Shown here in pieces: positions 5,001-51,008 of a stretch of 64,000 nucleotides of DNA; the stretch's first letter is position 1; each line of letters opens with the position of its first letter. Position numbers and translations under genes: made by a program. The stretch is taken from contig OX387604.1 of NCBI GenBank assembly GCA_947568835.1, positions 7,657,860-7,721,859 on the forward strand. Direction: 5' to 3'. The DNA comes from Protonemura montana. Taxonomy: Eukaryota; Arthropoda; Insecta; Plecoptera; Nemouridae. The notes under the pieces were generated by a model, which worked only from the letters and a program-made list of their open reading frames with translations, was not told the origin of the DNA and made no database searches.

Positions 5001-7720
5001 GGATCCAACAAAACACTGGTCAGTGCAAGAACGAGAAAGCGTTTTGTATTTGTGTTCACTACAGAGAAACCTTACCATTCTTACTAAAAATTCACTTAAA
5101 GCTGTCACATAAAAAGTACGCCATTTCTTTTAAAGTGTTTTAACTTCTGATATTCACATTTGGCACGCACTATAAGTCACTGGTTTGGAAGATATATTTA
5201 TACAATTTCAATAAATACCAATGCAATACCATATTTACCTATTATTCTTGGCCTCATCACGGAATTCCAATCACCGTGGCCAAGACATCCAAAAGTACCA
5301 TCACCACAAGTGATAACCATTCCTGAATCCGACAAGAAGACACTAAAACCATCTCCAGCACTCACATGGTTGATACTTTTTCCCTTTAGAGAATCAATAC
5401 AAAGTGGATCTTGAATCCACGCATCTGCTTGTCCATTACCCAGAGATCCGAATTTCCCTTCACCCCAAGCATACACCAATCGTTCTGAAAAATTCAAAAG
5501 CGAACGAATGTACAGTGAAATTACAAGTGATAATTGAAATTAAATATGTTACCTGAAGTCAAGACAATCATGTGCGTGCTGCTGACTGCCAGCTCAGCGA
5601 CTCTGGTTCGGGGAGGGATTGGTAGGGGTGTGAATAAGCATTCTGATCCGTGTGTTATGTCCATCTCATAGACTACAGATCTAAGAATAAGAACAGGTTC
5701 ACTCATTCGCTTTACTGCACATAGAGAGTAAATGTCCGCTGTGTAATGTGCTTGTCAGTGTGGCTTACCTTTGCTCCTTGTCTCTATAAAATAATACAAA
5801 AAAATATATCAATTGAAAGTACTTATCACAATTTTAGTGAACGCTTCTTAAATATATGGTGTAGGAGGAAAATGGAATCTGCGAATTACTTCGAGTTAGA
5901 TGAGTCGGGCGACGATTCATTGTAACCAAAAGGTTCCGTCTGACATTGAAGCGTTTCCAAAATTCTTGGCAAACGGTTTTGCAGTATATGCTCTGCCGTT
6001 GGACGCAACGCAGGATCTTTTTGAAGAATGTCATGTATTAACTCGCTTAGTCCTTGTGAATATCCAGACGGAATGGGCGCAAAATATCCCTGAAAATTGT
6101 ACAGCACATTTTATGCATTTGTCGGAAATCTTCCAAGACATGCCATCCAACAAGCTGTTAAATTATCAAAAACAAAGAGATATCACATTTCTTTTCATCC
6201 CAAGTTACTAAGAAAGTTGGGACACGAAGTATCCTAAAGATTAAAAAGTTCTTGTATTCGTTCACGAGTGCTGAGTTACACTGTGGTCAGCATTCAGGGG
6301 CACAAAGGCAAGGGAGACGAGGTTGCTCTGCGGGCTGCGTTCAGGGGCACAAGGGCAAGGGAGACGAGGTTGCTCTGCGGGCTGCGTTCAGGGGCACAAG
6401 GACAAGGGAGGCGAGGTTGCTCTGCGGGCTGCGTTCAGGGGCACAAGGGCAAGGGAGACGAGGTTGCTCTGCGGGCTGCGTTCAGTGGCACAAGGGCAAG
6501 GGAGGCGAGGTTGCTCTGCGGGCTGCGTTTAGGGGCACAAGGAAATTTCAGTCAGCCTGGCCATCCTGTAATGAGAAGTAATAAACATTTCCAGGGAAGT
6601 CAATGCAAAATTTTAGAGTGAGCATGTGAAACCAAACGTTTTGGTGGCATATATGTAACAAAGAGTTTACCGCCATGATTTTGTTGACAAGTGCCGGCAA
6701 GTTAGAACCCTCAAATGTCTTCTGAAGGCAAGCCATCTCGTATAAGATACATCCCAGCGCCCAGATGTCTGACTTCTCATCGTATTGCTTGCCTTCACAC
6801 TAAAAAAGCACATTTGCTCATTATATGGATGTATCACATTGAGGGTTTTATCACATTGAAGCAATTGTAGAAAAAAATATTTACCATTTCTGGACTTATG
6901 TAATAAGGCGTTCCCAATACAGTTTGTGCTTGGACAAGTGTAGTCATTACTTTCGAAATCCCAAAATCGCCTACTTTAATTCTGTTATTTTTGTGTAAGA
7001 ATACGTTCGCGGTTTTCAAATCTCTGTAACAGGAAATTGGCCTTGAGAGTGGATAAGGCTGAAAATGCAATTGAGTTCTGCTGCCAGTGTTAGTTGCTTT
7101 CATAGTCGTTACTTACCTGTGTAATACACTGTGATTATGCATGTAACGGATAGCCTCAACGATTTGACTGAACAGTAAAATGACTAGCTTCTCCTCCATT
7201 TTCGTTGAGCGACGCGCAAGCATTTGAGCCAATGTTCCTTGATCTGCATACTCCATTTCGATCATTAAAGTGCCGTCGCGCTCGAAGCTCCCTAAATACC
7301 TGTTCAATATCACGATAAGTTACACTAACATGTTCTCCAACCATGGTTTCACACAAAACAAATACCATCGAGGATGGTGAAGGAATAGTTCACAATTATC
7401 AAAATGGGTTTTTAGTTGGTTCCCAGAAACTTGCCTGACAATGTTCTCGTGATGAAGAATAGACAAAACTTGCACCTCATTCAGCGCCATTTGTCTCTCG
7501 GCAGCATTTAGATCGACCATGTTGATCTCCTTGATCACAACCAAGGACTCATCACAAGTCTTCTTATACAAAACGGCGGTCCCGAACGCTCCTATAGAGA
7601 TACGAAACGTTAAGGGAAAAATAACTGTACTCGGAACCTGACTTTAATAGTATTTTTATATTTACCCTTTCCAACAGCGCGGATCTTTTCATATCCTTCA
7701 AGGAGTGAGTTTTCTGCCAT
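2005..7720 (-). CDS. NEK9: NEK8/NEK9-type serine/threonine kinase with RCC1 domain
   Basis: NIMA-related kinase with a C-terminal RCC1 propeller; family members act in spindle assembly (NEK9) or cilia (NEK8). Exons: 7666-7720, 7435-7591, 7117-7299, 6885-7023, 6671-6799, 5927-6089, 5769-5783, 5553-5714, 5239-5484, 4851-4998, 4202-4379, 3900-4124, 3693-3788, 2541-2597, 2262-2460, 2005-2082. Phases chain throughout except that one short exon (length 2 mod 3) is missing between 3693 and 2597. Kinase motifs in order: GKGAFG loop, VVIKE lysine, HRDLKTAN, GDFGIS, GTPYYISPE, SDIWALGC. RCC1 blades follow, such as SWGRGCHGRLGLG, WLCGSNYNNKLGL and FTFGSNNDGQLG. The last exon (IPNWIKAELAQSEDDW) recalls the W-x-x-x-E-L segment downstream of RCC1 in NEK9, so NEK9 is preferred over NEK8. 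I see no long NEK9-type C-terminal coiled coil. The start is the ATG just before YEKIRAVG. Intron 2 uses a GC donor. Confidence 0.88.
2755..3540. repeat. Diverged ~255-bp tandem repeat, T-rich
   Basis: Blocks such as 'tctacagtttttgagatttt' recur near 2760, 3178 and 3426. A second block, 'ccgagggcgatcttgggcaa'-like, recurs near 3130 and 3380 with the preceding 'tgaaatt(g/t)ac(a/g)ttttcagt' segment, a period of about 255 bp. The stretch lies in a NEK9 3' intron, where the one exon missing from the gene model should also be. Confidence 0.55.
6297..6543 (+). repeat. 47-bp minisatellite, 5.25 copies
   Basis: A 47-bp unit starting ggggcacaagggcaagggag repeats at 6297, 6344, 6391, 6438 and 6485, with a partial sixth copy at 6532. 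Copies differ at only a few positions. The unit length is not a multiple of three and contains no plus-strand stop, so all three forward frames stay open and give overlapping spurious reading frames. It lies inside a NEK9 intron (6090-6670), antisense to the gene. Its GC content is far above its surroundings. Confidence 0.95.
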
Positions 7721-13089: not shown

Positions 13090-13800
13090 GATCCACTAAC
13101 ACATTTTTTTGACATTTTTTTTAAATTTTTGTACAGTCGGGTTCTTTAAAGTCTCCGGTAGCATATTGAAGAGTCTCATTCCTTGTTGTTTGGCCTGATT
13201 TCTAATTTGAGTCCTATTTTCTGGTTCAATTTCAAAGTTTCCTTTGTTTCTAGTTTTGTATTGGTGCTTTGGTACCGGGAATTGACTAGAGTTTATTTTT
13301 ATAAAATACAGTAGATTGAGTAAGTATAGGATTGGGAATGTTAACATTTTTAATTTTTTAAACTGGTTTCGGCATGTGGCCTTTCGGTCAAGTTTCAGGA
13401 TAATTTTTATTGCTCTTTTTTGGAGAGTAAATATATTTTTCCAATGACAAGAGTTTCCCCAGAATATTATCCCGTAGCTCATCTGTGTTTCGAAAAGGCC
13501 ATGGTATGTTATTTTTAGGGTGTTTATCGAAGTGATCGGCTTAAGAGCTCTTATGGCATAGCATAGTTTAGCTAATTTGCTCTGTAGTTTGTTGATGTGA
13601 CCCTTCCAATTTAATTTGTGGTCAAGTTTAATGCCCTGGAAAGTGGTTTCTTCTACTTTTTTTAATATTTCGTTGCCGACGTTGATATTTAAGTTATTGA
13701 CCAGAGTGCCCCTTGTTTTGAACGATATAACCTTTGTTTTGCTTGCGTTTAGTTTTAGATGATTGATGGGCGTAGTTTCTTTATTTCTTAATTCCTTAAT
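13090..13800 (-). mobile_element. 5'-truncated non-LTR retrotransposon (LINE), reverse transcriptase C-terminal part
   Basis: An open reverse-strand frame from about 13800 to 13096 reads LKLNASKTKVISF, then LDHKLNWKGHINKLQSKL, MSYGIIFWGNS and LFNMLPETLKN. These are hallmarks of the region after the RT catalytic core in jockey/CR1-type LINEs. The frame starts abruptly next to an in-frame stop at the left junction, typical of 5' truncation during target-primed insertion. The 3' end is A/T-rich. The catalytic domain is absent, so the copy cannot move by itself. Confidence 0.85.
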
Positions 13801-25076: not shown

Positions 25077-27159
25077 ATGGCTGCAACAAATTTGGGAAAT
25101 AAACGAAAGATGCTGCACGACGTGCCCAAATTTTCTAAAGAAGATAAAAAAAGGTATAGAGAGCAGAAACTTTTAAAGCTGAATCAAGAACACATTGCAG
25201 GAACTAGCCAAGCAACACAGGCTGAAGTCACCGAATTGCAGCAAGAGAATGAAATGGTGCGACCAAATGTATCAACACTCACAATTGCAGTTCCTGGATC
25301 TATTTTAGAAAATGCCCAAACCCCTGCTCTGCGTGCATATCTTGCTGGACAGATCGCTCGTGCTGCTGTTATCTATAGAGTTCACGAGGTAACTAACTTG
25401 ACGCATTTTACAAATTTTTCTTTCCGAAATATGTGTGTGTGGAGTAGGAATAGAGCACCCCTTCATCAATATTACTGTACTCCACAGTTTATTAGGGCGT
25501 AGTATGTTTTTTCAAAGTGTAACCCTATCGCATACCCAGGAATAGGCAAGCCAATTGAAAAGTATCTGAAATGCCTACTAGTTTCAAGATACATTAAAAA
25601 AGTATCTGAAATATAGGTATAAGATACTTCCACAAAAAGTATCTCATGATATTGATACTTAAGTACCTTGAAGATACTCAAGATACTTTTCAATCAAAAG
25701 AAATTTGCATTTATAAAGTTGATTGGCTAGGGGAAGAGTAAAGTGTGTTCCTGTCAGAGAGCAGACTTTTCTTTATAACTACTCTTTCAACTTCTTCAGT
25801 ATATTTATAAATAACATTGACGCCTGCCAAATTTAAAGCTGTTCAGCATAAACTGAACTAGCAATTGGAACCAGCAAAACAATTATTGGACAGTAATAGA
25901 GATACATATCTCAGATACTGCCCATCCTTGTGCATACCTACCTACTATTGCTTTTGCCTATGCAAGGCTTGATCAGCTCAGACTCTTTGCCAGAATCTTT
26001 GCCTAGTCATAATTTTTGGGCTGCTGCACTTGTGAATGAAAGTAAGTGTGATAACTTTTGCATCAAAAGAAAAAAAAATACATTACGAAGTTTTTGATAA
26101 TTGTCCCAATTATTAATAATTTTTTCCAAAATTTTGTAACTTGTACCTGTATCACAACAACAGAAAAATTAGTTATTTTTACTTCATGTTCAAATGTTTG
26201 GATTTGAATAACTTTTTTAGCACTAGTGCTAAAGCTAGATGAAGTAAATGCATGTCCAAAATCCATTATATCCACATTTTCTGTTGCAAATTAACTGTAG
26301 ACTGCAGAGGTGGTTGATTTGACATTAGTGTGTTAAACTAAGGAATCACACTGAAACTCTTATATTATTCCAGATTGTGATCTTCGACGACGTTGAGGAC
26401 CAGAAAACTGATACTTTCAATGGAATGTCTACACGATATGCTACTGCGCAATTTGCCAAGCTTCTACAATATCTTGAATGCCCCCAATATCTAAGAAAGA
26501 AAATATTCCCTTTGCATAAAGATTTAGAATTTGCTGGTATTATGAATCCTTTAGACTGTCCACATCACTTGCGAAGTACTGATGTATCTGCATTTCGAGA
26601 AGGAATTGTTACATCTCACCAGTCCAAAAACACTTATGTCAACGTTGGACTTCATAAAGATGCTTTGGTGGATCGCAACTTACAGCCAGGGATCAGGGTG
26701 ACAGTCAAACTCGACTCACCGGAGTCATATGCCCAGAAGCGCAGAGGAAAAGTCGTGTCTCCACTGACACCTGAATTAGAGCTGGGCATATACTGGGGAT
26801 ACACTGTTAGAGTAGCTGGCTCAATCAGTCAAGTATTCTCACAGTCGATTTATGATGGAGGTTATGATGTCACAGTGGGAACATCAGAAAAGGGGAAATC
26901 CATTGATGAAATTACATCCTCGGAAATGCCGAATTATAACCATGCTTTAGTGGTGTTTGGAGGTTTGAACGGGTTGGAACAAGCCATAGAGAGTGATCCG
27001 CTTCAAAAAATTGATGACCCAATGTATTTGTTTGATGTTTATATTAACACATGTCCTGAGCAAGGCTCTAATATAATTAGAACAGAAGAGGCTGTTTTTA
27101 TCACACTAGCAGAGCTGAGGACAAAGCTCTTCCCAAAACAAAAGATACAATGTCCATAA
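25077..27159 (+). CDS. SPOUT1: SPOUT-domain RNA methyltransferase (C9orf114/CENP-32)
   Basis: Two exons, 25077-25388 and 26374-27159 (365 residues; human protein 376). SPOUT1 is a trefoil-knot methyltransferase linked to RNA modification and to spindle/centromere organisation. The start is the ATG of MAATNLGNKRKM, the first ATG of the frame. A basic coiled N-terminus is followed by LTIAVPGSILENAQT and LRAYLAGQIARA, the conserved start of the SPOUT domain. Exon 2 gives QYLECPQYLRK, LDCPHHLR, YWGYTVRVA, GTSEKG and the knot-proximal NYNHALVVFGGLNGLEQAI, then FDVYINTCPEQGSNIIRTEE. Splice signals are CACGAG|GTAACT and TATTCCAG|ATTG, phase 0. A poly(A) signal AATAAA follows at 27207-27212. Its 3' end faces that of RPE. 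Confidence 0.96.
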
Positions 27160-27479: not shown

Positions 27480-28340
27480 TCATGGTTTCTTCATGTATTC
27501 CTGGACAGCAGTTCGCAGATTGGAAATAACTTCGGTAGGATCTCTAGCCTTGGTTACCGCTGTGCCCGATACTATCCAATTGGCACCAGCCTACCAAATA
27601 AAAAGCATTTAATACATTGATACATGGAGATATAACACATATAAAGATTTACCTGCACTTTTTACTAATCCAAAAGTTTCTTACCTGAGCACACTCGTGT
27701 ATGTTAACAGGTCCCACACCACCATCTACCTCAATGTTCACGAGAGGAAAGTTCTTCCGTAACCAGGCAATTTTCGGTAACATTTTGTACATGAAGGTCT
27801 GTCCTCCGAATCCAGGTTGAACTGTCATAATAAGTACAGTATCAGCAAGATCTATGTACTCCACTATGTCTTCGATGGGAGTATCTGGCTTAAGAGCCAG
27901 GCCTACTTTCATGCCAGCCTCTCGCACTTTCCTGCATATCATTGGCACGTCGTGGCATGGCTCGACATGAAACGTGTACTGGTTGACCGCAGCATTGCAC
28001 ATCGGCTCAATCCACTGGGCAAATAAAGTTTTAGTTAGTCAGTCTTCCCTAGAATTATATCCAAATAATACCAGAGGATACGTTCTCTTACTTGTTCCGG
28101 GTTCATGACCATCATGTGTGTCTCAAAAAACACAAGTGGCATTTTTGCCCGAAGGCAAGCAACGACGGGAGGTCCAAATGTTAGGTTTGGTACAAAGTGC
28201 CCATCCATAACATCTAAATGCAGATAATCTGCTCCAGCGTCTAGCAGAGCCTTCGAGACGTTGCAAAGGTCCGATAGATCGGTGTTCAGTATTGAAGGCC
28301 CAATCATACATTTCAGTGCACCTCGAGACCATCGAGCCAT
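27480..28340 (-). CDS. RPE: Ribulose-phosphate 3-epimerase
   Basis: Three exons, 28092-28340, 27685-28014 and 27480-27590 (229 residues; human 228). The enzyme interconverts D-ribulose 5-phosphate and D-xylulose 5-phosphate in the cytosolic pentose phosphate pathway. Motifs in order: [33 protein letters not shown], containing the metal-binding His and catalytic Asp; [41 protein letters not shown] with the second Asp; and in exon 3 [15 protein letters not shown], the phosphate-binding loop. Junctions: CAA|GTAAGA, CCCAG|TGG, TCAG|GTAAGA, GGTAG|GCT, all phase 0. It is divergent from CTP synthase (678 bp apart) and convergent with SPOUT1 (320 bp). No key residue is missing. Confidence 0.97.
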
Positions 28341-29018
28341 GGTTTACTTGACTTTCAGTTGAAAAACTCCAAAATTGAACGTAAGTTTGAACCACTTTAG
28401 TTGCTGATCGGAATAGTTGAATTACGTAAATCTTACTTTTTTTAAAAGCTTGGTTATGAATCGCGCAGGCACGTTACAGACACGAACTAAACCACGGTCA
28501 AGGCTGACAAGCGTTATGAGGGAGAGGAAGGTGGGGCGTGTTGATTTGATTGGGTGACATGAAATTCATGGCGCCAAACAGGAAGCCAATGGCAAGGCGT
28601 TTACTTATTTTTTAATTCCATTTGAATTTTGCTTATTTTTATACTTTTATAAAACGATTGAATTGACACACTGAGTTGTAATATAAAATGAAAAATATCG
28701 TATTCCCAGCCACAAATTACATCTGAATTATAGTGAGCCTTGTTACATGGGCTCCGAAAATAACATAGAATATTTTTGGAATATTACGCGGGAAGGATAA
28801 GAAATCGATATTCGGATGCGTTGCGACTTGAGTAGTTGTTCATCGGGTTGGCACAGACTCTTCGCTGGCTCAGACAGGAGTAGTAGGATCGCGTGTGGAC
28901 GTGCGTATGGCTAGTGCTCATCAGGAATCTACTCCGCTTGTTTATTTAGAGTGCACTCACAACAAAGTTCTATCGACATATGTAGTGTCCATTTAAAAGT
29001 CACCTGCAACAAATCAAA
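28341..29018. promoter_or_regulatory. Shared intergenic region between RPE and CTP synthase
   Basis: Only 678 bases separate the two divergent start codons, so both 5' leaders and core promoters must lie here, unless an undetected leader exon exists. I see no clear TATA box. The arrangement suggests a bidirectional promoter; this is inference from spacing. Confidence 0.45.
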
Positions 29019-33742
<4,724 letters not shown>

Positions 33743-36623: not shown

Positions 36624-39600
36624 TCAGATGAACCATTCCTTTCTTTTCTGCACTTGGTGTCCAGTTGTTGATCGGACAACGGCAGAATCTGGGTCCAAAG
36701 CACACTCGGCACCCTTGTCTTCTTGTGTCAAATACTCACCCTTGTGCCGCGAAAGGTAACGACCAATCAGAATGGCCATCACGACCAAAGCCAAAAAAAT
36801 GATAGCAAGAATTCCTGAAACCAATCATCAGTTGTTTTATAAAAATTGTCAAGGTCCATAAATGGAACGTCACTGTTACCATGTCCTCAATGATCATAAA
36901 CCTATAAGCATAATTAACATGATGCCATTGAGGAACTATTGAAACCTCCCTATCAGGCAGTGAATTCTAGCAGTTGGAGATTATAACCAGACAACATCAA
37001 ACCGGCAAACATGATTATGTATTATGAGTACCTCGTCAAAAAACGAGAATAAATAAATAATATTAATATAAATTCAAACAATGTTTAATGATCTTTGCAA
37101 AAGGAAGAATGTGGTTAACTCACCTCCAAGAATAGCAGAATCTGTTTTGTGATAGATGGCACGCAGCTTTTCTTCATCAACAATCGGTGGGGGCCGGGTC
37201 TCAATTTCGTTGGGGGGATGGGTAACGGGTTCAACTCCACAGAAATCTTCAGTCAATGCAGCTGAAAAATAAATGTCAGAAATAAATTTCACATTCTAAA
37301 CAAACAAATTAAAACTTCTCACCGAAAAAATTAAATAACGTTGATCTTACATCCAATCGAGCGAACATTAGCAGGGCCATCTTCTTGGAAGAGAAGTTTC
37401 AGCGGGTATATATCATCAAACTCTACTCTCGAAATGCACCCCGAAAAACCTTCTGTCATCGACTCATTTCTACCAATGTACATGTATTGTATGTTGTTAA
37501 ATTGTGCGTCTGCAGATGCCTTGATATCGAAAGTGAATTCTTTTTCTTCGTAGTTATCGACTTGCAAAACCATCTTAGACCCAGAGTCTTTTCTTGTGAT
37601 TCGAACATCGTGATACTGTCCTAGACCAAAATGCTTGTTTGGGAAGATGAGCTCTTGACGCTCGAAACCGAAGTCGAACACCACACGAAGATGCCCTAAA
37701 AGAGATAACAAAGGGATATGAGTTTGTTTTATGATTGTTTCATTGCTTTCTGTACTACAATTCTAAAAAACAAAGTATCTCATCAAATATAAACGTGAAC
37801 TCACCACTGTTGGAGATCATAATAGTGAGATATTCTCCCGAAATGTTGGAGAAGAAGCCTAGCAGGAATCCCTTTGGATTAGTTGTCGTAAAACCAACAC
37901 GGATTTTCTCCGAAATAGTGGACCGCCAGCTACCCATAAAGTCATACTTCACTCCAGTGCTTGGTCGCATGTTCACTCCAATTTCTGGAAAACAGTTTAT
38001 CATTTACTAAACGAAAAGAGGCAAAGTTGAGCAAAGTAAGACAAACTACGATAACAATCACGTCCCTCCTTGGCAGTAATTTCTTGAACAAAGCTAACAA
38101 GACAATTTTTTTTGTTTATTTGTTTGGGTGTCTCAACCCACTGCCAGCTCAGGCATGCTTCATCAAATGAAAGAAGAATGAGAGCAGAGATTGTAAATTA
38201 TTTGCTTGTGGCTACTACAACCAGAAGTTCAGTAAACTACTTCAACTTGTATTCACATATTAGTAATCCAGTAACTGGCCAGGAATAAAGCACCCACCAT
38301 CCTACTAAATAATCTGCACAGGTAGCTTACCGTCGGCACAAATCGGCCCTTTGAAAGCAGTCCATCGGCAGTCACACAAGTATCCCTCATAGCGCTCGTG
38401 GCATGTTCCGTTATTAAGACACGGTGAGCTCTCGCACCGTCCAACACAGCCCGGTGTGACGCCGTAGAGTCCACGCTGGGCGTGACCACGCAGGTCAGCA
38501 AGCACTCCGTTAAGCAGCAGTGCACGAATGCAACCGACATAGCCGTCGCGGTAGTCCACGGTTGAGCCTGCCACATACAGTTATAGGTCAGAGTATATGG
38601 CTTTAAGTGCATCAACTAGATATTAGACTAGGCCAACGTCTCCCCGTGGACTTTCCCTGTCAGTGCCTCAGTGTCGACAGTACCTTAAGGTAAGAGGGCA
38701 ATCAGTCTAGCACATGAAAGAAGATACCAGCACAAGGATTGCTCTCTGCATTACAACCAACACATGAATTTAGTAATGTCAGCAGCAAGACTTCAAAATA
38801 AGCTTTAATTTTACCCGAAAAATAATTCCTAAGTTTTTTATAATAAACAAACAAATACATTTCATAGCTTTAAAAATAACGAAAGCATTGGAGGAAACTC
38901 AAAATGGCAGGTATTAAGGTAAACTAAGGACTACCTTTTCCCCTTACAAATTGCAGACCTTTTTTGTGCAACCAATCCTGCCTAAATTGTCTTAAATAAC
39001 GTTATGAAACAAACAAGGAAGTTGTTGAATGTGTTTGGCCCAGTTCATAAGCATCACTAATTTTCAGTTCTCAGCTACAAATGCCTGAGCTGGATTGTTA
39101 ATGTATCTCCAAAATTACAACTCATGTTGATGGGGTTTTCGGACAGGGGGTACATTCTTGATTGTGGTGTCTGAGCTCGGTATCAACTTATTTTTGAGGT
39201 TCTATGCTTCATGTACACTCTAACGTGGGCTGTCAGTTTTCGGAGAAGTATCACAACCGATTCTGCTGGGACTTACCGATAACGAGCTCGGAGGTGAGGT
39301 GCAAAGCTCGGACAGGGCCTGGAGGTTCTCTGACCTCTGCCTTGAGGGCCCCATCCACGACAATGCGAGCTTCTTTCCTAGAGAACACAAAAATAAAATG
39401 TGATGACATGGCAAGATTCACTCAGTCACAGAACATTTTGGCGTGTTGGATACACTGGTTATCATATGATCACCGCAGTCGAGCAACACAGCGCTGGGTC
39501 AGGTATTGGATGGGTTCTGTTTGAGAGACAGGTTGGAGGCATGAAAGTTAAGGCATTTGCCTTGCTTATCTCGAAGCATGGATTTGTGAAGGAATACTGC

Positions 39601-42600
39601 TGTTAGCGTTATACCATCCTTCGAAATGGATGCTAAGCTGGTGGCCACCTTTGGTGCTTTTTGCCAGGAGTAGGCTACGGACTGGCACCGGGCTTCCCCT
39701 CCTCCCTTTTAGACTAGATTAGGTTTACCATTATTCTCGTCGTCATCCACTTATTCATCGACGCGATTAGACCAGTGCTGCATGGCCCGGTGTCGAAATA
39801 GTTCGTCGTTAAACCCCACAAATCACTCAAGCAATCAATCAACTCACCCTGACAGTGCATGGGCCTAATCTCAGCTCAAAAATTGAGGCTGAAATTTTTT
39901 ATAGGCCACAAATATTTCAAGATTTGAAATTTGAGGTTCGAAACTGGAAACTGGAACTTTAAGAAGAGGTTTTAGTATGGTTCCAATTTCCAGCGACTTG
40001 CTCAACACTAACATTCACCCAGAAGAGCCAATAGGCTGGAAGGCTGTCAGCTATTTTTACTGGCAGTACTTATCCTGTATAAAAAAACATTGAAGCATTG
40101 AATACATGGCTACAAATCATGTGATGCTAAATTATCTGCTGGCTGCCGATTAAATCTCTCCACAACTTTTTGAGAAAGAATATTTGAAAATCGATTAATT
40201 TTTTCGAAAATGGAAAAAAATTTGTCGAAATTTTTCCAACGTTTGAAGATAAAGGTCTGGCCGCTTAGCTGACATACCTATTTCTTTCGACGGAAACCGA
40301 GTGCCAGTTGTTATCGGCTAGCCGATACGAAGTTTCGACGTTGACCCCCAAAGGACCGCTGCCTGCTTGGTACTGGAACTGAAGCTGATCACCACCGATA
40401 ATGGAGATCTTGATGTAGTCTGTGGGCCCTTTGCTGTTGATAATCACCGCGTTGTCGGCAGTAGTCTTGAACTCGAAGTAGATGTCTCCGCTGTGGCCCA
40501 TGTCGAACGTAGGCAGGTTAATGGAAGCGTCTGAGATGCGGAACGTCACCACATTGTTGAACAGGTCTGGAAATGAACATTTTCTTAATGGTATCGGTTC
40601 GGCACTTTAGCAAAACTAGTCAATAGATATAATTCTGCTGCAAATATCATCGCTTAGAGTTGGGTTCTCTGTGATAAGAGAGATATACCAAAGCATCAAA
40701 ATACCAGATTTTGAATTATAACCCCACATGCATTCCATAAGGATATTGGACAATTCATCCGTTTTCCACTTCCACAGAAATTAACCAGCCCTTTGACATT
40801 TCTAACCACATTCTAAAATCATACACATCAATAGTAAGAATAGGAGTAAGCTGGAATGTCTAATGTCTTCTTCAAAATATTTTTTGAATTCCATAACAAA
40901 GAATTTACTGAATATGAGCAAAATACAACATTTTTACTTGGTTAATAGATATTATGTTCACTAACTTTTTGATTAAAGCATTTACCATTACCATTTTGAT
41001 TGAAAAAAGCACTCAGAATAAAGTTGATCCGAGGTTTGGGAAGTGACAATTTGAGACATGTCGTCAGCAAACAGCGTCATTTGACCCACATTTACTTCTC
41101 TAGGTAGCTCATTCGTAAACAGTATGAACAAGAGGGGCGAGATGACTGACCCCTGGGGTAAACTGATATTCACCGTGATTTCATTTGACCGACATTCTAT
41201 TACATTCCTTCTAATGTTAACCATTTGTTTACAGTCTGTAAGGTATGACCTCACCCAGGAATTAGCTACCCCACTGATCCCCATGTTGTTCAGCTTGTAT
41301 AATAATATTTCATGGTCTATTGTTTCAAAAGCCTTCGTGAAATCATAAAACACTCCAGCTACTTATAGTTTGTTTCTCCGTGCCTAGAACCAATTCAACA
41401 AAACCTGCAATTGCTGACTGTGTTGATCTTCCTTTGGTGAAGCCGTGCTGACAATTCATTAAATTGTTTTTCGTAATAAATGATAGGATTTGGCTACAGA
41501 AGGCCTTTTCGAATATTTTACTTAACACGGAAATTATTGAGACTGGTCGATAATTAGCTACACATTTTACATCGCCTTTCTTTTGCAAACTACACGCTAA
41601 GATAAAAAATTAGCTATAACCATTTTGAACTGGTGATTAACTATATATTAAACTAGATATAGTAAAACTGGCTACAAGTTGCATAATTCCCTTCTATCCA
41701 TAGTCCCTACCACACTATTACCATAGGTTTAGCTGATATTATGTCCTAAACATCCTAATTGAGGCGGCACGACATGGTAGCAATAGATTCGGTCACTTCT
41801 GGTAACCAACAGTTGGGATTTGCATCTGTAAAGGCAAATTGAGAGTACTCCCGTCACAGATGTGAATTATCTCCGAGAAATAATAAAAGCAATTTCTTTA
41901 TTAATGTTCAGAAAGATGGTGGCTTCACCTCCTATTTCACTACATATTCCACACCTTCTACCCTCTACCATTTCGGTCGGTATCGAAATCGTATAGTTGG
42001 TTCTTTTTTGCAGACAGCTTCGGTTTAGCTTAGGGACTTGTGACTAAACCTATAAATATAAAACGGTACATCGGTACACTCCACTTAGAACCAGAGGTCA
42101 GAATGTCTACAAATTTGTATTCCAATTTCAGGAAGTTGAAACTCTCACCCCAATTACATATTAAAAAAAAAAATAACATCCCCTGCCTAGCTTTCGGCAT
42201 TGGGCTTATAGTTAGTCAGAGCTACAGCTGTAATGTTAAAAGTTCTACAGCCTCCAAAAGGTGTTGACAGTTAGCTGTCCCTGTACCAACTACAGTTGAT
42301 ACAGTACCATCACCGAGTATCATAGTACCATTATAGAGAGCGCTAGAAATGCCAGAGAGCGCCTAGCTAGCAAAGTGCAACCCTAGCGTTTTGATGGATA
42401 TATCTGGAGTGCGAGAGCCAGGCTCGCTCTCTTAACGGCACCCTCTCTCAGACGCCAGACACCAGACGGGCAGGACGCCGCCGAGCGTTCCTTCCAGCCA
42501 GCTTGTTTATACGTGAAGATGTTATAAGTAAACGAGAATCTCTACACGTCGCGTCTTGCTGCAACCCGAACACCTTCCTGTCTCCGCCAAACCTCCGATC

Positions 42601-45600
42601 ACGGCCACATCCCACTTCACAAACCTCTACAGTTAAATAATAAGTACTCAAAATATCAATACATGTACATTGTAACTCAATCCTTGAGGCTAAGATTAAT
42701 TGAGCAAAAACCAGTCTCAAATGGAAGTGATCTGCGAGAAATAACTCAAGTTCCTAATTTAATTTCTTAACGCTAAAAATAAAGGCGACTTCATTTCTAG
42801 GCATCATCATTTTTGTTGGTTCATCGGTCAGCAATTATTGCAAACAGAAGCACTGAGACTCTGACAGAACTTATAAGCCTAATGCTACCGGCAACTCAAA
42901 GCTGACTCACCATCTCCTTCGCAAGTGAGTGGACCAAGGGTGTACCGCCCCTCCTTGTCGTCGAGCGGATTCCCAGTGTCACCGAATCGCAGCTGCTTGA
43001 CGGGTAGGTATTCCTTCTGGACTATCTCGCCACCGTCTTCTGCCCATGAGTCGAGCCCCGCATCGCAGTTGCACCACTTGGTAGGGTCGATGCATGTGCC
43101 GAGCACACCGCACTCGCATTTGCGCGATCCGGGTAGCGAGCCACCCCAAAAGTCCATTTTCTGGTTGTAACGCGACACCCACCACGAGAATGGTCGGAAG
43201 TTGTCCTCGTCAGCTGCGAGCGGAAAATTCGGATGAACGAAGTGAAAGCCGGAGGACAGACGTACTGATCACCAAGTGGATGGAGATGTTGCAATTTGTT
43301 GCACATGAAGAAGACTGACTAGAAGCTTGACTAATAACTCAATGTAGCACAATCAGAAGATAATATTATGCTGTCACACTGCTTAAAAAAGGTCTATATA
43401 TGATTATGAATTAGTTCTACAAAGTACGTTCATTGCAATAATTATTATCGTGAATTCTTAAAATAAAATTAAGAGAAAATAGAAATCATGCCCAACTACA
43501 AGACCTACGAAATGCCAAACAAATTTTGGTTTTCCCACGAAAACATTTTGAGAGACCTATTCCGCACATTGTCAACCACTGACTGTAACTCGTCAGGGAG
43601 CACCAACCTGGCGAGTTGAGGAGGCGTGATCGCCTACACGAGTAGTGGAGCCGTTGGGAGCATGACGCAGATCGATTAATGAGCGCTTCTGTCTGCTCCA
43701 TGTCCGCGTCGTACATGATGTTCTGCGTGAAGCTGCCTGCTTCTTGGAAGCCATCCACTGGAGTTGTCTGCTCGTTGCGGTGACCAAGCACAGTCAGGAT
43801 GCGTCCGTCAGCTGAACAAATATTTCAGCTTAAAAACCGAAGGAACATGGGACAGAGTTGGAGGTGCAGAGTTCTACATTTTTTTAAAGAGTTTTAAAGT
43901 TTTTGATTGATTTATGTATATTTAGTCTGGTATTAACAATTTTCCATGTTTTGACTCGACTAACGAATATGATTGCAATGCTGATGATGCTAATAATGTT
44001 GATGATATGCAATGATTGCATGTGAAAAAATGCAGCTAAATTAATCAGTTTGATCAGTTAACATGTTCTTCTTTTTTCAAATAGAATTGTACATTTTTTT
44101 CTTCCAGACGAGTATGTAAGATGTTTAGAATTGAGATAAAATAGATTGTTAGGACACATTGAACATTTTTTGGAGGCCAACGTAGAATTTTATAATCTTT
44201 GTTGTGGCGAGGAAGGAAAGAGAGAGAGCTCGATATCCCAGAGAAGAAAATGTATATCAGATGGTGCACTTATTGAGAAATTATGAGAACTTCCAAGAAC
44301 TTTAATGTTTAGGCGTGTTGCCTTTGTCAGTGTTAACAGGGGCGTGCAGTCAGGATATATGCTCGGTATGCGCACTGAATTGCCCCACGACCTATTTTTA
44401 TTACATGTTTCTTGAAATATTTGGCCAGTTCATAAATTTGGTTGTTCCAAAAAACCGTAGGGATGTTTTCAGTTTTTTGCAGCAAATATTTTCACTTAAG
44501 CTTTTTCTTTTAGCGTGACTTCACTTGTATGCTCCACTAGTTAATTCAGCGCTAACATGTAGCGATATTAGAGTACGCGGAGAGGGAGAGAGTAGGTATA
44601 GCGTTCTGGCATGGATATGCTATGTCTTTACAGTCATGCATTGCGCGTACTCACGAGCTTGAGTCTGCCAAGCAAACACGTCTGTACAGTGTGTGTAGGA
44701 GCGATTAAAACAATTTTTTTTTTTATTGAAATAATTGCTGGAGCAGCATTTTAGTTTGACCACAAGTGCACCCTTTAGCTACACACAACTTCGATACCTG
44801 AATATGTTGACAGGTTTTACGAAAGTATTCTAAATCAGTTTATACTAATAAGATGGCTGTTAAATCATCCATTCTTGCAAATGCATTTTGTGCTAGGTAC
44901 TCAATTTATTGACAAGATAAGACAACTAAAATTATGTTTTTGTTGTAAACAACACTCATAACATCGTTGATTAGCAAGAAAGTGTGAATTTAAATGTTTG
45001 AAGATTCTGTGGGACGTTCTAGAGAATAAGAGATGTAATTATTATTTACTTACCATAAAATTCACATGTCACTGGGAAAGGTTTCAATGGTCCACTTCCA
45101 TCAACATCGATTCTTAACTGAGCTCGTTGGTTTACAGAGTTGGAGTTCTTGTAGGCAGTGCAAGACAATGGATTCAAAGCTAAAATAAAAACAATAAGTC
45201 AGCTTTGCCAAATGGTGCAACGGTTTACAAAACTAAATATTGTTAGGTGTCACCCTTTCTTGGGAGCAAGAGGCTTCTTCGAGTGTCGGTAGGGCTCGAT
45301 AATTGTGACTCATGAGTGCTGTCTAGTCGATGAATTGATAAAGGGGCCTAATTATTTAAGGTTAAAAATAAAATAATTTATGGGATGGAATTACCAATAC
45401 AATATGTGTACTGGGGAGAAATTCAGGTAAGTGATATTCGCTCAGAATCTGGGTTTCCTCTCCCATGGCCTAACAGATATATACACTTTGTTGGGCTCGC
45501 AGCATCGTCAGCAATAACACTGACCCGTCCTTGGAAGCGAGATAATACACTGTACAGTGGCCAAGCCAGTGGGGCAAACAGTGGTGAGCAAGTAATAGTT

Positions 45601-48600
45601 GGAGACTTTAACAATATTCTAGAGGCAAGTGCAAGTATTGAAACAGCTCTAATGCACCGATCACTTGATATCCAAAAAGTATGTTGCTATGTAGAGATAC
45701 TTACAAGTATGGCATACAGCACCAGCATATCCAGTACCACTGCAGTCACAGTAAAACTCCAGGGAGCTCTGTTTGCACACACCGAAATGTTTACAAGGGT
45801 TCGGGTTGCACCGGTCAACCATCTGGCACGCATCAAACACCACTTCATTCTTGCAACAGTATTCCTGAAACAATTCAAAATATTGACAATTAAACCAGTG
45901 CCAAAGACAGTGTGGTATTGAACTATTTAAACGTTCCAGCTAACTCGCAAAAATCACCACTTGGCTGTGATATTCTATCGCAATTAGTTGGTGCAGTCAG
46001 GTTAAGCACATGGCTTGAATGAAACCAACGTTATATATTCAGAGCTCAGTGTCAAAATTTTGGTTGGAGTAGGTTTTTCAAGACGTAATTTTATTCAATC
46101 ACGTTAAATCAAACCCTTAAGAGGTCTGTGCTACCGCAGCTGAAACGTTGACATACATTGACTGAAAATAATTCTTAAAGGACAAAACCATAACAGAAAT
46201 CACAATTAACGCACATCTTCTTTCCAGTCAGTCGGCAGTTTGTAGTTGCCATCGATGCTGATAACCCTCATGCAGCCGACAAATCCCGGAGTGCCGTAAA
46301 CGCCGCCGCCAACCATGTAGATGCTGCCTGTAGTCATCTCAAGGAGGCGCACAGTCTTCATCGGTCGCCCGTCCATGTTAAGCACCAGGTTGTTGACGCC
46401 GATGGTCAGGATCACTTGGTGCCACTTGCCATCGTTAAACAGGTCGTCGTAGTTGTCCAACAACGCTTTCGGGTTTTTTCCCGTCACAATCTCCACTTTG
46501 ATCTTACCGTCGTCCAAAAACAACTGCAAAGAATCACATAGTTAAACTAGATATGGGAGGGAGATTGAGTTGGTGCTGGCATTACAAATTGTAAATGGAT
46601 GCTAATCAAATGTTTTTCTGGTTGGATATTCTCAGAAATATCATTTTTACACATCAGTCAAAGAAAGTTGAATGAAAGAAATAAGAAAGTAGAAGAACTG
46701 AGATTTGAATCACCAACATCAAGCTAAACTCTTTTTAAACAAGCACTTCCATTTTCTTTACGTCTAAATCAATTATATTTTTACAATGTTCAGCAAGTAC
46801 ATTTTGAATGTAAATTCCAGCACTTGTGTTGAAAACATAACCCAACCGGCTTGATGCTGGATTTTGTCCTCCTAGAATTTGTAAATCAAAAAGGACATGC
46901 AATTCGGAGCATGTGGGCTGTCTTGGTATGTGTAACCGTTTAGAAATCAGGGGCAACTGATGGCTTTTAACACTCGTAAATGAAGGAAAATAAGACCACT
47001 TTTTGCACAATTATTTTTGTAAGGGACTGATTTGTGTCAAATATTTAAATATTTTTTTAAAGAGAACATTTTGACAGGCACAAAAATAGGTTCTATTCCA
47101 CAGAAAATAATGAACACTATATAGTATATACACATGTACATTTGAATCTTTGTGATTCATGCATGCAATTTTATTCTTTCAAGTTCTTCAAAAAAGACAA
47201 AATCAATTCTACCTGTAAACCAAGTCTAGTTTAATGTTGGTGAAATCTGACATGAGCTGTTGTAAATCTTTGTAATGCTAATAATGCAAAGGAGGCTAGG
47301 GGTACCTTGACATGACCTTCGGAGGTGAACTTGTGAAACAGAAGGAGACCGTCGCCTTCATATGTTCTGAATGCAAAGGAGACATTCATCGTACGAACAC
47401 CCTCATAGCCTTTCAGCCTCGCAAACGATGCCGATGTCAAGAATGTAACAGGAATTATCTGTGGCTCCTGAAACAAACAAAGATCCATTGAATCAACTCC
47501 ATAAATCGAATGAAGACTGTAAAACAGCAGCAAAAATAGCAGTTAACTTACAGGACAGCTGTAGAGCGTGTTGACTTTGGCATACAGCTGCGATGCTCCA
47601 TCATAGTTTGCTTCTTTGATATTACGAATCACGTTGCTTGAATTCAGGTACAAATTTTCCATGCAGCCAGTGAAATTTTGATTTACTGTCAATCCTTCTT
47701 GTTTATTTGGTACTCCACCAATATGGAACTAAATGAAAAACAATGAAAAGGAACAATGATTTAATGGTAATGCATGGGACTTGATAACGAGTTTCAATGG
47801 GAATTTATCAGATGGGCCTTACCTCTCTGTTCAAATTGAGTCTGGAGAATTCCCCCTTGACCCTTCCCTGAATGACAACACGGTCCACGGAAAAGACGAT
47901 ATCGCGGCGGTTGCGCGATATGACCACATCGTGCCAGATGTTATCGTCGAGGAGACTTCCCACCGAAAGGCTCGTCATGATGCCAGCACCTACAAGCCAT
48001 TCACACTTAATAAATCTACTGCCAGTTATAAGCTCCATAGCACCTTCTTCTAATATCAACTGCAAGTCAAGCCTTACCAAGATCTATATTCAGGAGCATT
48101 CTGTTATCACGAATTTGGAGAGCAAGATAGTCTCCTTGAGTCCCTCGGCTGTACATCAAGACTCCATTTGCAACACTTGTCTTGAACCGAAACCGAATTG
48201 ACTCTCGCGTTGCTGATATTGGATCGTTGGTCAAATCCCACCGCACCAAAGATGTGCCGTTGAAATAGATATTTTCAGCAGCTAAAAGCAGACAATAAGT
48301 ATAAGCCCAAAAGTTGACTACTATCACGTTTGCTCTACGTTTACTTCAACAATGACAACAGAGATCAAGCTCGTAAATCATTTAAAAATCAAGAATTTAA
48401 TTTTGGCTATCAACCAATTAACCAGCAGATCCACTATTTAGCATCTAAATGAAAGATTTAAAACATTACATACTTCACCTGCAGAGCACCTATTATCATA
48501 TTCAAATTAAACCCATGGCAAAACAAGAAATCTGAGCTGCTGAGCCATTTGCCTTATTTATAATGCTTACCATAATCACAGCCATAAAGCTCAACTCTAA

Positions 48601-51008
48601 GGGATATGCGGTCTCGCCACCGGGTTGGGTTTATTCTAATCCACTGAGCGACTATCGGAACTTCAAACATATTCCTTCTTATTGAATCTCCATCAACATT
48701 TCCTTTGAACATCTGAACAAAAAACACAGTCATCAATACAACGAGTCCCCACTCTCACCATTTCTATAAATCAAAAGTTTGGTTATTTAGTTCCAACAGC
48801 ATTAGAATTTTGTACTTGGCAAATGTTAGTATCCAGTCATAGATAATGAGAATCAGCAGATAGTCACCAAAAAATGCATATTTTAATTAATGTTAGCAGA
48901 AAGTCAGTGCTAAAAACTTGTGAATAGTTAGTGCTGATTAGTGAAGAAAGTTTGGGAGGGAGTTGATATTTGGATCGCGAGCAGGACTTTTAATTTATAC
49001 CTCTGTTTCTCCGGTAGCAGTTGTGTAGCTCTTCCATCCCTCAATATCATCTGAATATTGCACAATATACTCTGTTACATATTCTAGCGTGCTTGCCCTC
49101 CCCCGAGTAGCTATAGAGCGGATTTCCTTCCGGCTGTCCAATTTAATTGTAAGAAATTGATTGTAAGTATTTTCTTCGGGAGTCCAGGCCAGGTCCCCTG
49201 CAATGAATAGTGAAGGTTGCTTGGGATTTGGTAAAGAAGGCAATTGTTAGCAAGAAAGAAATAAGGGACACATAGGCATGCTGTGCGATGACCATTACTG
49301 TGCATACATGCGATTAAAGCAAGAAAGAAAACCATACACATATGAACAAAAAAAGTTGCAACAAGCAGAATATCCTAGACATTGGCAAGGGATGGTTTGC
49401 TTCATCTGGAAGAGTAGAGAGGGTCAATCTTCTCCCATTGCATACCTTCACATTGCCTCCAGGCTCCTTATAAACGGCATAGTCGAGCCCATTGGAGCCA
49501 TAAGAGATGCCATACTCTTGCACATACTCGGGTGGGTGAGCTCGACCTTGTGTCGCAATGCCTGTGATGTTCATCACTTGACCCAGGTCTATGATGAGGT
49601 GCTGGTCAAAATCTGAACTGGCAGCAGTCCATGCATTTTCTCCTAGACCACCAAACATGCCGGCAGAACGCAGCCAAAAATCATAGAAAATCAGTGCTTG
49701 CTCACAAACGGCAAACTAAACAGGTTTGATACAAAACAAAACTAAAATAAACTAATAAAATTAAGACTTCTGTTTACCACCTTGTGAAAATGGGTCATAA
49801 AAAAATTCTACATAAACATTTAAAAAGCAACTACATCTGCAACTTAATTCAGTAGATTGCGAGCCAAGTTTGCAAAAAGCTAAAAACAACTACCTACAGT
49901 TCTATAAATAAGAATTTTAGCTACACCAAAGGGATGGAATCATGGATCGAACTACTTCACCCTACCCTAGCAAACATAACTAAATCAATATGTTTTAGTG
50001 GCAGGCTGAGATGTCACAAACTTGGGGCCAAGCACGAAATTGATGTAACATACACATATTGATCAAATCCTGCATTAAAAAAGAAGACTTGGTTTGTTAC
50101 TGGTACTCTGAATCTTCATACTACAATAGTAATCCAACCCTGTCTTGGTTAAATAAATGTATATAAACAAAAATTAAGTACTTTCAAAAATTAAAAAATC
50201 TACAGTTATACCTTTGAAGTGAAATTTAAAATATTTAGTTACATAAAGAAGCAGGTTCAATTAGCTCTAATAAAGATACGAAGAAAATATATTACCGTCA
50301 AGTACAGCATACTTCGGACCACGTTCTCGTAAAGCGGACGTAGCCTTCAGCTCAGCTCGATAAACCTGAGGCTGATTGCATTCATATTCGTCATCTGTAA
50401 AGAATTTTTTAATTTTAAGAAAGATTTGTTCGTTGTCACTGGGAAATACTGGGAAACGTCACTACTAAGGTACTGAGGTTATAACGGGAGTAAACGACAT
50501 ACGCATGCGCAATAATGCTGTTTGGGGCATTGGAAATATACCATTCTCTGCAATTGATGATTACTGGTGCAAAGTCTTTGCATTGCACGCCGATTAATTA
50601 AATATCTTGGGACCGAAATGGGATGGGCCTTGGTCAGAATAAAGCTGTGAACATTTAGCAACAGCTACAAAACTGTAGCAGAGGTAGGCAAAATATTAAA
50701 CCGAGAATGTAACGAACTTCAGAGGTGTGATGACACACATGCCACTCTGCCATAATAACTACGAAAAGCCATGAAAACATTAATTGAAGGTGTTGTAACC
50801 CCAAATCCATCAATAGCGCCATATTGAAATGGGCTGGGTCTGATGATTCACTTTAGTGTTTAATTTTTTTTACAGGAACAAGTACCTAATTTATAAAAAG
50901 GAATATGTATTATGTGAAAATTTCAAGAAAGCTGTTAACTTTACCTGTTCGGATTGACGAAAAACCAAACACTAACACAAAAAGAACAATAAAATGCTTC
51001 GCCACCAT
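36624..51008 (-). CDS. Nrx-IV: Neurexin-IV / contactin-associated protein (CASPR) family receptor
   Basis: Single-pass adhesion receptor of septate junctions and axo-glial contacts. Exons: 50945-51008, 50296-50394, 49446-49642 or 49001-49197, 48571-48712, 48078-48281, 47823-47989, 47552-47728, 47306-47467, 46215-46523, 45705-45864, 45054-45179, 43608-43811, 42911-43213, 40278-40566, 39277-39377, 38331-38567, 37805-37984, 37351-37695, 37124-37261, 36624-36814. With one of exons 3/4 all phases agree: 1264 residues (Drosophila Nrx-IV and vertebrate CASPRs about 1280-1330). Order: signal peptide, discoidin (ends RVELYGC), LamG, LamG, EGF (CNPNPCKHFGVC), fibrinogen-like (SRLLN; WGGS), LamG, EGF (CLNNGTCHERYEGYLCDC), LamG, stalk, membrane helix (ILAIIFLALVVMAILIG). 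The tail has the protein-4.1-binding RYLSRHKGEYLTQEDKGA and a C-terminal EWFI PDZ-type ligand. An RT fragment and a 5S SINE lie in introns. Confidence 0.96.
39435..39843 (+). mobile_element. 5S-rRNA-derived SINE, copy 2, in neurexin-IV intron
   Basis: The head keeps 'gagcaacacagcgctgggtc' and 'aggtattggatggg', but the later 5S part is deleted. The body has 'taggctacggactggcaccg' and the tail 'gattagaccagtgctgcatg', then 'gtcgttaaaccccacaaatc' with an (aatc)n end. It is inserted antisense to the host gene, about 60 bases from the exon at 39277-39377. Confidence 0.88.
40988..41588 (-). mobile_element. LINE reverse transcriptase fragment in neurexin-IV intron, frameshifted
   Basis: Reverse-strand motifs in order are ANYRPVSIISVLSKIFEKAF, NCQHGFTKGRSTQSAI, FYDFTKAFETIDHEILLYKL, LPQGSVISPLLFILF and the catalytic-box equivalent LFADDMS. 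The fragment is broken by a one-base frame change near 41345 and stops soon after the FADD box. It is an inactive jockey/CR1-like copy lying in the same orientation as the host gene. Confidence 0.9.
49001..49197 (-). other. Nrx-IV: Neurexin-IV alternative exon 4 (discoidin N-part, version b)
   Basis: 197 nt, phase 1 in and phase 0 out. The acceptor is CATTGCAG|GGG and the donor ACAGAG|GTATAA. It encodes GDLAWTPEENTYNQFLTIKL, then SIATRGRASTLEYVTEYIVQ, aligning end to end with exon 3. Ligand-facing residues differ strongly while the fold residues agree. Confidence 0.88.
49446..49642 (-). other. Nrx-IV: Neurexin-IV alternative exon 3 (discoidin N-part, version a)
   Basis: 197 nt, phase 1 in and phase 0 out. 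The acceptor is GGTCTAG|GA and the donor GTGAAG|GTATGC. It encodes ENAWTAASSDFDQHLIIDLG, then GIATQGRAHPPEYVQEYGIS. Homologous and length-identical to 49001-49197; the two cannot both be included without shifting the frame. Confidence 0.88.

What the first reader, a model, noticed from the sequence alone, without database searches (positions are those of the whole stretch)
49001..49642. Mutually exclusive discoidin exons in neurexin-IV
Two adjacent exons are homologous, exactly 197 nt each, start in phase 1 and end in phase 0. Including both (394 nt) or neither would break the frame, so one must be chosen. Both keep the discoidin core (W-T; IATxGRA; EYVxEY) but differ elsewhere, implying two ligand-binding versions. 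As I recall, Drosophila Nrx-IV also has a mutually exclusive exon pair in its discoidin domain, used differently in neurons and in glia or epithelia. If this animal is not an insect, the switch would be ancient or would have arisen twice.
Basis: partly seen in the sequence, partly recalled or inferred. Interest (0 to 1): 0.78.

Follow-up and report, generated by a model that had tools for sequence, protein, structure and literature searches.

The report
Ancient either-or exons in insect neurexin-IV
An insect's neurexin-IV gene carries two versions of one exon of which only one can be used at a time, the same pair that in fruit flies separates the glial junction protein from the neuronal one, and relatives of both versions occur in spiders, so the choice may be about as old as the arthropods.

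Summary
The minus strand holds a complete neurexin-IV gene (21 coding exons, 1264 codons). Exons 49642-49446 and 49197-49001 are homologous, 197 nt each. Using both gives a stop in exon 4; using neither gives a stop in exon 5. The pair is orthologous to fly exon 3 (septate-junction/glial form) and exon 4 (neuronal form): a known system in another species.

Two additions. (1) Both exon types occur in chelicerates (type 4: two spiders, a pseudoscorpion; type 3: two other spiders, a horseshoe crab), and type 3 in a centipede. Trees split type 3 from type 4 across these groups, so the duplication probably predates the chelicerate-mandibulate split. Sixty-six columns limit this: a chelicerate-only duplication is rejected with a mixture model (p 0.025, 0.026) but not with LG+G4 (p 0.168). 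(2) The intron after exon 4 holds five CTAAY elements, three matching the HOW motif (A/G/U)CUAAC; 13 of 126,848 other windows of that length have three. This fits conserved HOW control but is untested.

No RNA data were available, so use of the exons in this animal is inferred.

The parts
36624..51008 (-). neurexin-IV coding region, 21 coding exons, ATG 51008 to stop codon 36626-36624
   Evidence: exons assigned by hand from frames, splice sites and fly-like order; 20 of 20 introns GT-AG, 1264 open codons; Pfam F5_F8_type_C, Laminin_G, EGF
50296..50394 (-). exon 2, common, ends in phase 1
49446..49642 (-). exon 3, type 3, orthologue of the fly septate-junction/glial exon
   Evidence: six of six type-3 diagnostic residues; trees
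49001..49197 (-). exon 4, type 4, orthologue of the fly neuronal exon
   Evidence: six of six type-4 diagnostic residues; trees
48571..48712 (-). exon 5, common, entered in phase 0
48801..48942 (-). cluster of five CTAAY elements in the intron after exon 4: ACTAAT 48942-48937, ACTAAC 48932-48927, GCTAAC 48897-48892, ACTAAC 48830-48825, TCTAAT 48806-48801; possible binding sites of a HOW/STAR protein
   Evidence: positions; enrichment; HOW motif from passages of PMC12868882

Best explanation
This is the neurexin-IV (CASPR-type) gene of an insect with a conserved pair of mutually exclusive exons that swap 66 residues, about half, of the N-terminal discoidin domain. As in Drosophila, exon 3 most likely gives the septate-junction form (epithelia, barrier glia) and exon 4 the neuronal, non-junctional form. 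A nuclear STAR protein of the HOW type, acting through the CTAAY cluster in the intron after exon 4, is the most likely agent that shifts cells from exon 4 to exon 3; transcripts with both exons or neither are out of frame. The pair arose by one tandem exon duplication before chelicerates and mandibulates parted. Shown here: exons, frame, orthology to the fly exon types, both types among chelicerates, the motif cluster. Inferred: tissue use, HOW action, exclusion in this animal's RNA, and that both exons lie in one spider gene.
For: Structure and frame. Orthology: six diagnostic columns, all matched by the window's exons; 15 of 15 proteins that carry both types have them in the order 3 then 4, among them a Glossina model, which ties type 3 to fly exon 3 and type 4 to fly exon 4. 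Fly use and HOW/Prp40/Cdk12 control: passages of reviews. Motif cluster: three [AGT]CTAAC in 288 nt against 4 in the 10,105 nt of the other 19 introns, and in 13 of 126,848 other windows; shuffles reach the observed CTAAY count in 4 of 1000. Antiquity: types split 97/74 and 67/93 with corals, 100/100 without corals and four long rows.
Against: No transcripts were seen. The HOW cluster is known in one species only, was noticed by eye before it was tested, and is weaker by looser motifs (ACTAAY 53, CTAAY 229 of 126,848 windows reach the count). STAR proteins bound downstream of an exon often favour it (recalled), whereas fly HOW works against exon 4, so the sense of the cluster is unclear. The test against a separate chelicerate duplication fails under LG+G4 (p 0.168).
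Confidence: 0.85

Rival explanations
1. The exon was duplicated separately in chelicerates and in insects, or the spider type-4 proteins come from a second neurexin-IV gene, so the pair is not one ancient switch.
For: Only 66 columns; AU test of a chelicerate clade p 0.168 under LG+G4; no single spider protein with both exon types was retrieved; the two type-3 spider proteins are the most alike in the body (90%).
Against: Types split 100/100 without outgroup (bootstrap not fully settled in the mixture run) and 97/74 and 67/93 with corals; chelicerate clade p 0.025 and 0.026, spider clade p 0.00044 under the mixture model. The two type-4 spider proteins are no closer to each other in the body (83%) than to the type-3 spider proteins (84-86%).
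Confidence: 0.2
2. Exclusion is enforced by competing RNA pairing (docking site and selectors) and not, or not only, by a protein.
For: A known mechanism for other insect exon clusters such as Dscam (search listing). One perfect 11-nt complement joins the start of the intron after exon 2 (50279-50289) with exon 4 (49168-49178).
Against: Pairing energies of the three introns are not better than shuffles (39, 12 and 19 of 60 as low); inverted-repeat search gave only three 11-nt pairs over 927-1300 nt. A weak test with one species.
Confidence: 0.12
3. One of the two exons is a dead copy and the gene uses a single exon.
Against: Both are open, equal in length and GT-AG bordered; each keeps all six diagnostic residues of its type and is up to 80% (exon 3) or 76% (exon 4) identical to other insects' copies of its type, against 35% to its neighbour.
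Confidence: 0.03

Closest known systems
Drosophila Neurexin IV exons 3 and 4, regulated by HOW, Prp40 and Cdk12 (Rodrigues et al. 2012, known here through reviews)
   Same: Orthologous gene, orthologous exons in the same order, alternative halves of the discoidin domain, mutually exclusive; CTAAY sites near exon 4 fit HOW control.
   Different: Tissue use, mutual exclusion in RNA and HOW control are not shown in this animal; the positions of the fly HOW sites could not be compared (paper not held).
Vertebrate CASPR/CNTNAP (for example CASPR2 discoidin domain, PDB 5y4m)
   Same: Same family by literature (passage of PMC2570956); its discoidin domain matches both isoforms (E 8e-21 and 8.1e-23).
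   Different: I know of no alternative discoidin exon pair in vertebrates (recalled, not tested).
Arthropod N-cadherin mutually exclusive exon pairs
   Same: Adhesion gene with exon pairs kept over long arthropod history; one pair is used differently in neural and mesodermal tissue (PMC2655722, abstract and one section read).
   Different: Different gene and domain; shown there for insects and Daphnia, not chelicerates, in the section read.

Membership tests
Neurexin-IV / CASPR family | Discoidin domain, laminin G domains, EGF domain, one membrane-spanning segment and short tail | tested here: met
   Pfam F5_F8_type_C 37-162, Laminin_G_2 in four stretches, EGF 526-556; hydrophobic segment and tail seen by eye and like other neurexin-4 proteins
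Neurexin-IV / CASPR family | Closest relatives are neurexin-4 proteins over the whole length | tested here: met
   79-82% identity to the best insect neurexin-4 proteins from exon 5 on
Mutually exclusive exon pair | Adjacent homologous exons of equal phase, frame broken by both or neither | tested here: met
Mutually exclusive exon pair | Transcripts with exactly one of the two | not testable with these tools
   no RNA data; proteins of other insects mostly carry one type (161 of 176 with a scored segment; 15 models carry both), but these are gene predictions
Fly-type Nrx-IV exon 3/exon 4 pair | Orthology of each exon to its fly counterpart, in the same order | tested here: met
   diagnostic columns, trees, order 3 then 4 in 15 of 15 models with both
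Fly-type Nrx-IV exon 3/exon 4 pair | Exon 3 in septate-junction cells and glia, exon 4 in neurons | not testable with these tools
   fly only
HOW-regulated exon | HOW-type motifs near the regulated exon | tested here: met
   binding motif from passages of PMC12868882
HOW-regulated exon | HOW binding and loss-of-HOW effect | not testable with these tools
   needs experiment
Docking site/selector exon cluster | Competing intronic pairing above chance | tested here: inconclusive
   not above shuffles, but one species and a coarse test

The most novel reading that the evidence does not exclude
The choice between a junctional and a neuronal neurexin-IV, made by swapping half of the discoidin domain and steered by a HOW-type STAR protein through sites after exon 4, was in place in the last common ancestor of living arthropods and has been kept in insects and chelicerates since, which would make it one of the oldest glia-versus-neuron splicing switches.
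Probability: 0.35. Interest if true: 0.6.

Novelty: new member of a known kind. Interest (0 to 1): 0.4.

Why it matters
It shows that the fly glia/neuron splice switch in neurexin-IV is not a fly oddity: a distant insect keeps the exon pair with intact frame logic, and both exon types reach into chelicerates. If the tissue use is shared too, arthropod barrier glia and neurons would have been told apart by the same exon choice since the group began, which spider and cockroach RNA can test.

Tried and rejected
The window's own genome could not be searched: the tool was unreachable, so there is no count of paralogues in this genome. Docking/selector pairing was looked for and not supported. A third exon copy was looked for in the window and not found. 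Steric exclusion and U2/U12 incompatibility were set aside: all 20 introns are GT-AG, and the intron between the two exons is 248 nt with a CTAAC 53 nt before exon 4 and 195 nt after the exon 3 donor. The primary fly paper (Rodrigues 2012, doi 10.1242/dev.074070) is not held; I recall from its abstract that one HOW site serves inclusion and three more serve exclusion of exon 4, and could not check it. Paper searches with neurexin-IV terms and one on mutually exclusive exons in arthropods showed no report of this pair outside flies in what I saw of the listings; only open-licence PubMed Central papers are held, and I read passages of few of them. Structure prediction was not tried, since the spliced protein is not contiguous in the window's DNA.

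Rows dropped: two coral proteins and four type-4 models that begin inside exon 4, from the type counts; segments under 50 residues; Daktulosphaira, Nesidiocoris, Cordylochernes, the centipede and the corals in the second tree set; P0010 and P0062 fell out of the body tree because my pattern did not match them. The exon trees used 42 arthropod segments chosen by me, the body tree 25 rows.

Full report
What is there. The minus strand of the window carries a complete neurexin-IV gene. I built it by hand from reading frames and splice sites: 21 coding exons from the ATG at 51008 to the stop codon at 36626-36624, 20 of 20 introns GT-AG, 1264 open codons. Pfam finds the F5/8 type C (discoidin) domain at residues 37-162, laminin G domains and an EGF domain. 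The discoidin part matches solved coagulation factor V/VIII, neuropilin, lactadherin and CASPR2 domains.

The exon pair. Exon 3 (49642-49446) and exon 4 (49197-49001) are 197 nt each. Exon 2 ends after one base of a codon and exon 5 begins on a codon boundary, so either exon alone keeps the frame. Both together stop at codon 148 in exon 4; neither stops at codon 60 in exon 5. The two peptides align without gaps with 23 of 66 residues identical and score 97, against a maximum of 15 in 2000 shuffles. Each covers residues 55-120, about half of the discoidin domain. A scan of 2158 six-frame ORFs of the window finds no third copy.

The animal. From exon 5 on the protein is 79-82% identical to three unnamed 'lgn' proteins (P0010, P0016, P0008), Timema, Blattella and Anabrus. 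In a quick tree of 25 rows it groups with Blattella, P0016, Timema and Bacillus (SH-aLRT 87, inner forks open; two rows fell out because my pattern missed them). So it is an insect, probably polyneopteran; the order is not settled.

Orthology of the exons. Three protein searches returned 182 different listed proteins; one search listed 120 of 237 hits, all 16, 120 of 138. Two are coral proteins, and four models begin inside exon 4 and have no segment of 50 residues. Of the other 176, 123 carry type 3 only, 38 type 4 only and 15 both; in 15 of 15 the order is 3 then 4. The database is clustered at 90% identity, so isoforms of one species often share a row: 'type 3 only' does not mean that a species lacks type 4. 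Over the segments (110 type 3, 22 type 4, corals left out) six columns separate the types (A/P 7, F/Y 12, S/Q 47, G/S 49, N/D 51, Y/W 55), and the window's exons have all six of their type. Both types were seen in Blattodea, Phasmatodea, Coleoptera, Hymenoptera, Lepidoptera, Hemiptera and Diptera (species names, types; order names are my own knowledge). In flies type 3 is seen in D. simulans (P0100) and type 4 in D. biarmipes isoform X2 (P0146); a Glossina model (P0133) has type 3 followed by type 4, so type 3 is fly exon 3 and type 4 is fly exon 4.

Beyond insects. brought in chelicerates and a centipede. Stegodyphus (isoform X2), Parasteatoda (isoform X2) and the pseudoscorpion Cordylochernes carry type 4; the spiders Oedothorax and Caerostris, the horseshoe crab Tachypleus (isoform X2) and the centipede Hemiscolopendra carry type 3. 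No single chelicerate protein with both was retrieved. In a tree of 46 segments with four coral discoidin segments as outgroup, type 4 is one side of a branch (97/74) and type 3 too (67/93); neither is starred. Holding all chelicerate rows together is rejected with p 0.025, the spider rows with p 0.00044. Without the corals and four long rows the split of type 3 from type 4 has 100/100 under both models (the bootstrap of the mixture run had not settled), but the AU test of a chelicerate clade gives 0.026 with the mixture model and 0.168 with LG+G4. The bodies of the four spider proteins are 83-90% identical; the two type-4 carriers (83%) are no closer to each other than to the type-3 carriers (84-86%), while the two type-3 carriers are at 90%. 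That is what one gene with two isoforms would give, and it does not prove it. One duplication before the chelicerate-mandibulate split is the most likely reading.

How it works. In Drosophila, exons 3 and 4 of Nrx-IV are mutually exclusive, the exon 3 form serves septate junctions and barrier glia and the exon 4 form neurons, and HOW with Prp40 and Cdk12 promotes exon 3 (passages of PMC11893892; PMC4267209; PMC10635556). HOW binds (A/G/U)CUAAC with nanomolar affinity (passages of PMC12868882). In the window the 288-nt intron after exon 4 has five CTAAY, three of them [AGT]CTAAC; the other 19 introns of the gene (10,105 nt) have 18 and 4. Of 126,848 overlapping windows of that length on both strands, 13 reach three [AGT]CTAAC, 53 reach three ACTAAY and 229 reach five CTAAY. 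Dinucleotide shuffles of the intron reach the counts of ACTAAY in 7 and of CTAAY in 4 of 1000. The introns before exon 3 and between the two exons show no such excess. I noticed the cluster by eye before testing it and looked at three introns, so these figures are somewhat generous. All five lie 93 nt or more before exon 5, further than branch points usually lie (recalled). That HOW acts through them is inferred, and whether they work against exon 4 or for it is open. Pairing between the introns is not above shuffles.

Novelty. The system is known from flies; the window gives a further insect member. The spread to chelicerates was not met in the listings, which cover open-licence papers only. 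A close precedent is N-cadherin, whose exon pairs are shared by fly and Daphnia (PMC2655722, abstract and section 6).

Limits. No RNA data; no DNA of other arthropods; the window's own genome could not be searched.

Noticed in passing
P0007 (Timema), P0032 (Operophtera), P0099 (Gryllus); window intron 50295-49643: Three neurexin-4 models from three insect orders contain a 4'-phosphopantetheinyl transferase (PF01648) stretch between the exon 2 part and the type-3 exon, which suggests a gene nested in that intron. tblastn of these stretches against the window finds only the neurexin exon 2 part and no credible match to the transferase, so it is absent from this window.
   Followed up: partly
40988-41362 (-), between neurexin-IV exons 14 and 15: Reverse transcriptase fragment (RVT_1, E 3e-16) in the longest intron of the gene (2344 nt).
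   Followed up: partly
13096-13800 (-): 234-codon ORF that reads to me like the end of a non-LTR retrotransposon polyprotein; no Pfam match.
   Followed up: partly
4721-7643 (-): Kinase and RCC1 pieces close together, like a NEK8/NEK9-type gene (Pkinase, RCC1; the NEK name is my reading).
   Followed up: partly
26329-27159 (+), 27649-28343 (-), 32705-33604 (+): Putative RNA methyltransferase (PF02598), ribulose-phosphate 3-epimerase (PF00834) and a glutamine amidotransferase domain that looks like CTP synthase (PF00117) (the CTP synthase name is my reading).
   Followed up: partly
P0160, P0163, P0164, P0165: Four neurexin-4 models in beetles and Hymenoptera begin at a methionine inside the type-4 exon and lack a signal peptide; either truncated predictions or an internal start.
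   Followed up: no
6162-6621 (+): Tandem repeat translated as GAQGQGRRGCSAGCVQ-like units in two frames.
   Followed up: no
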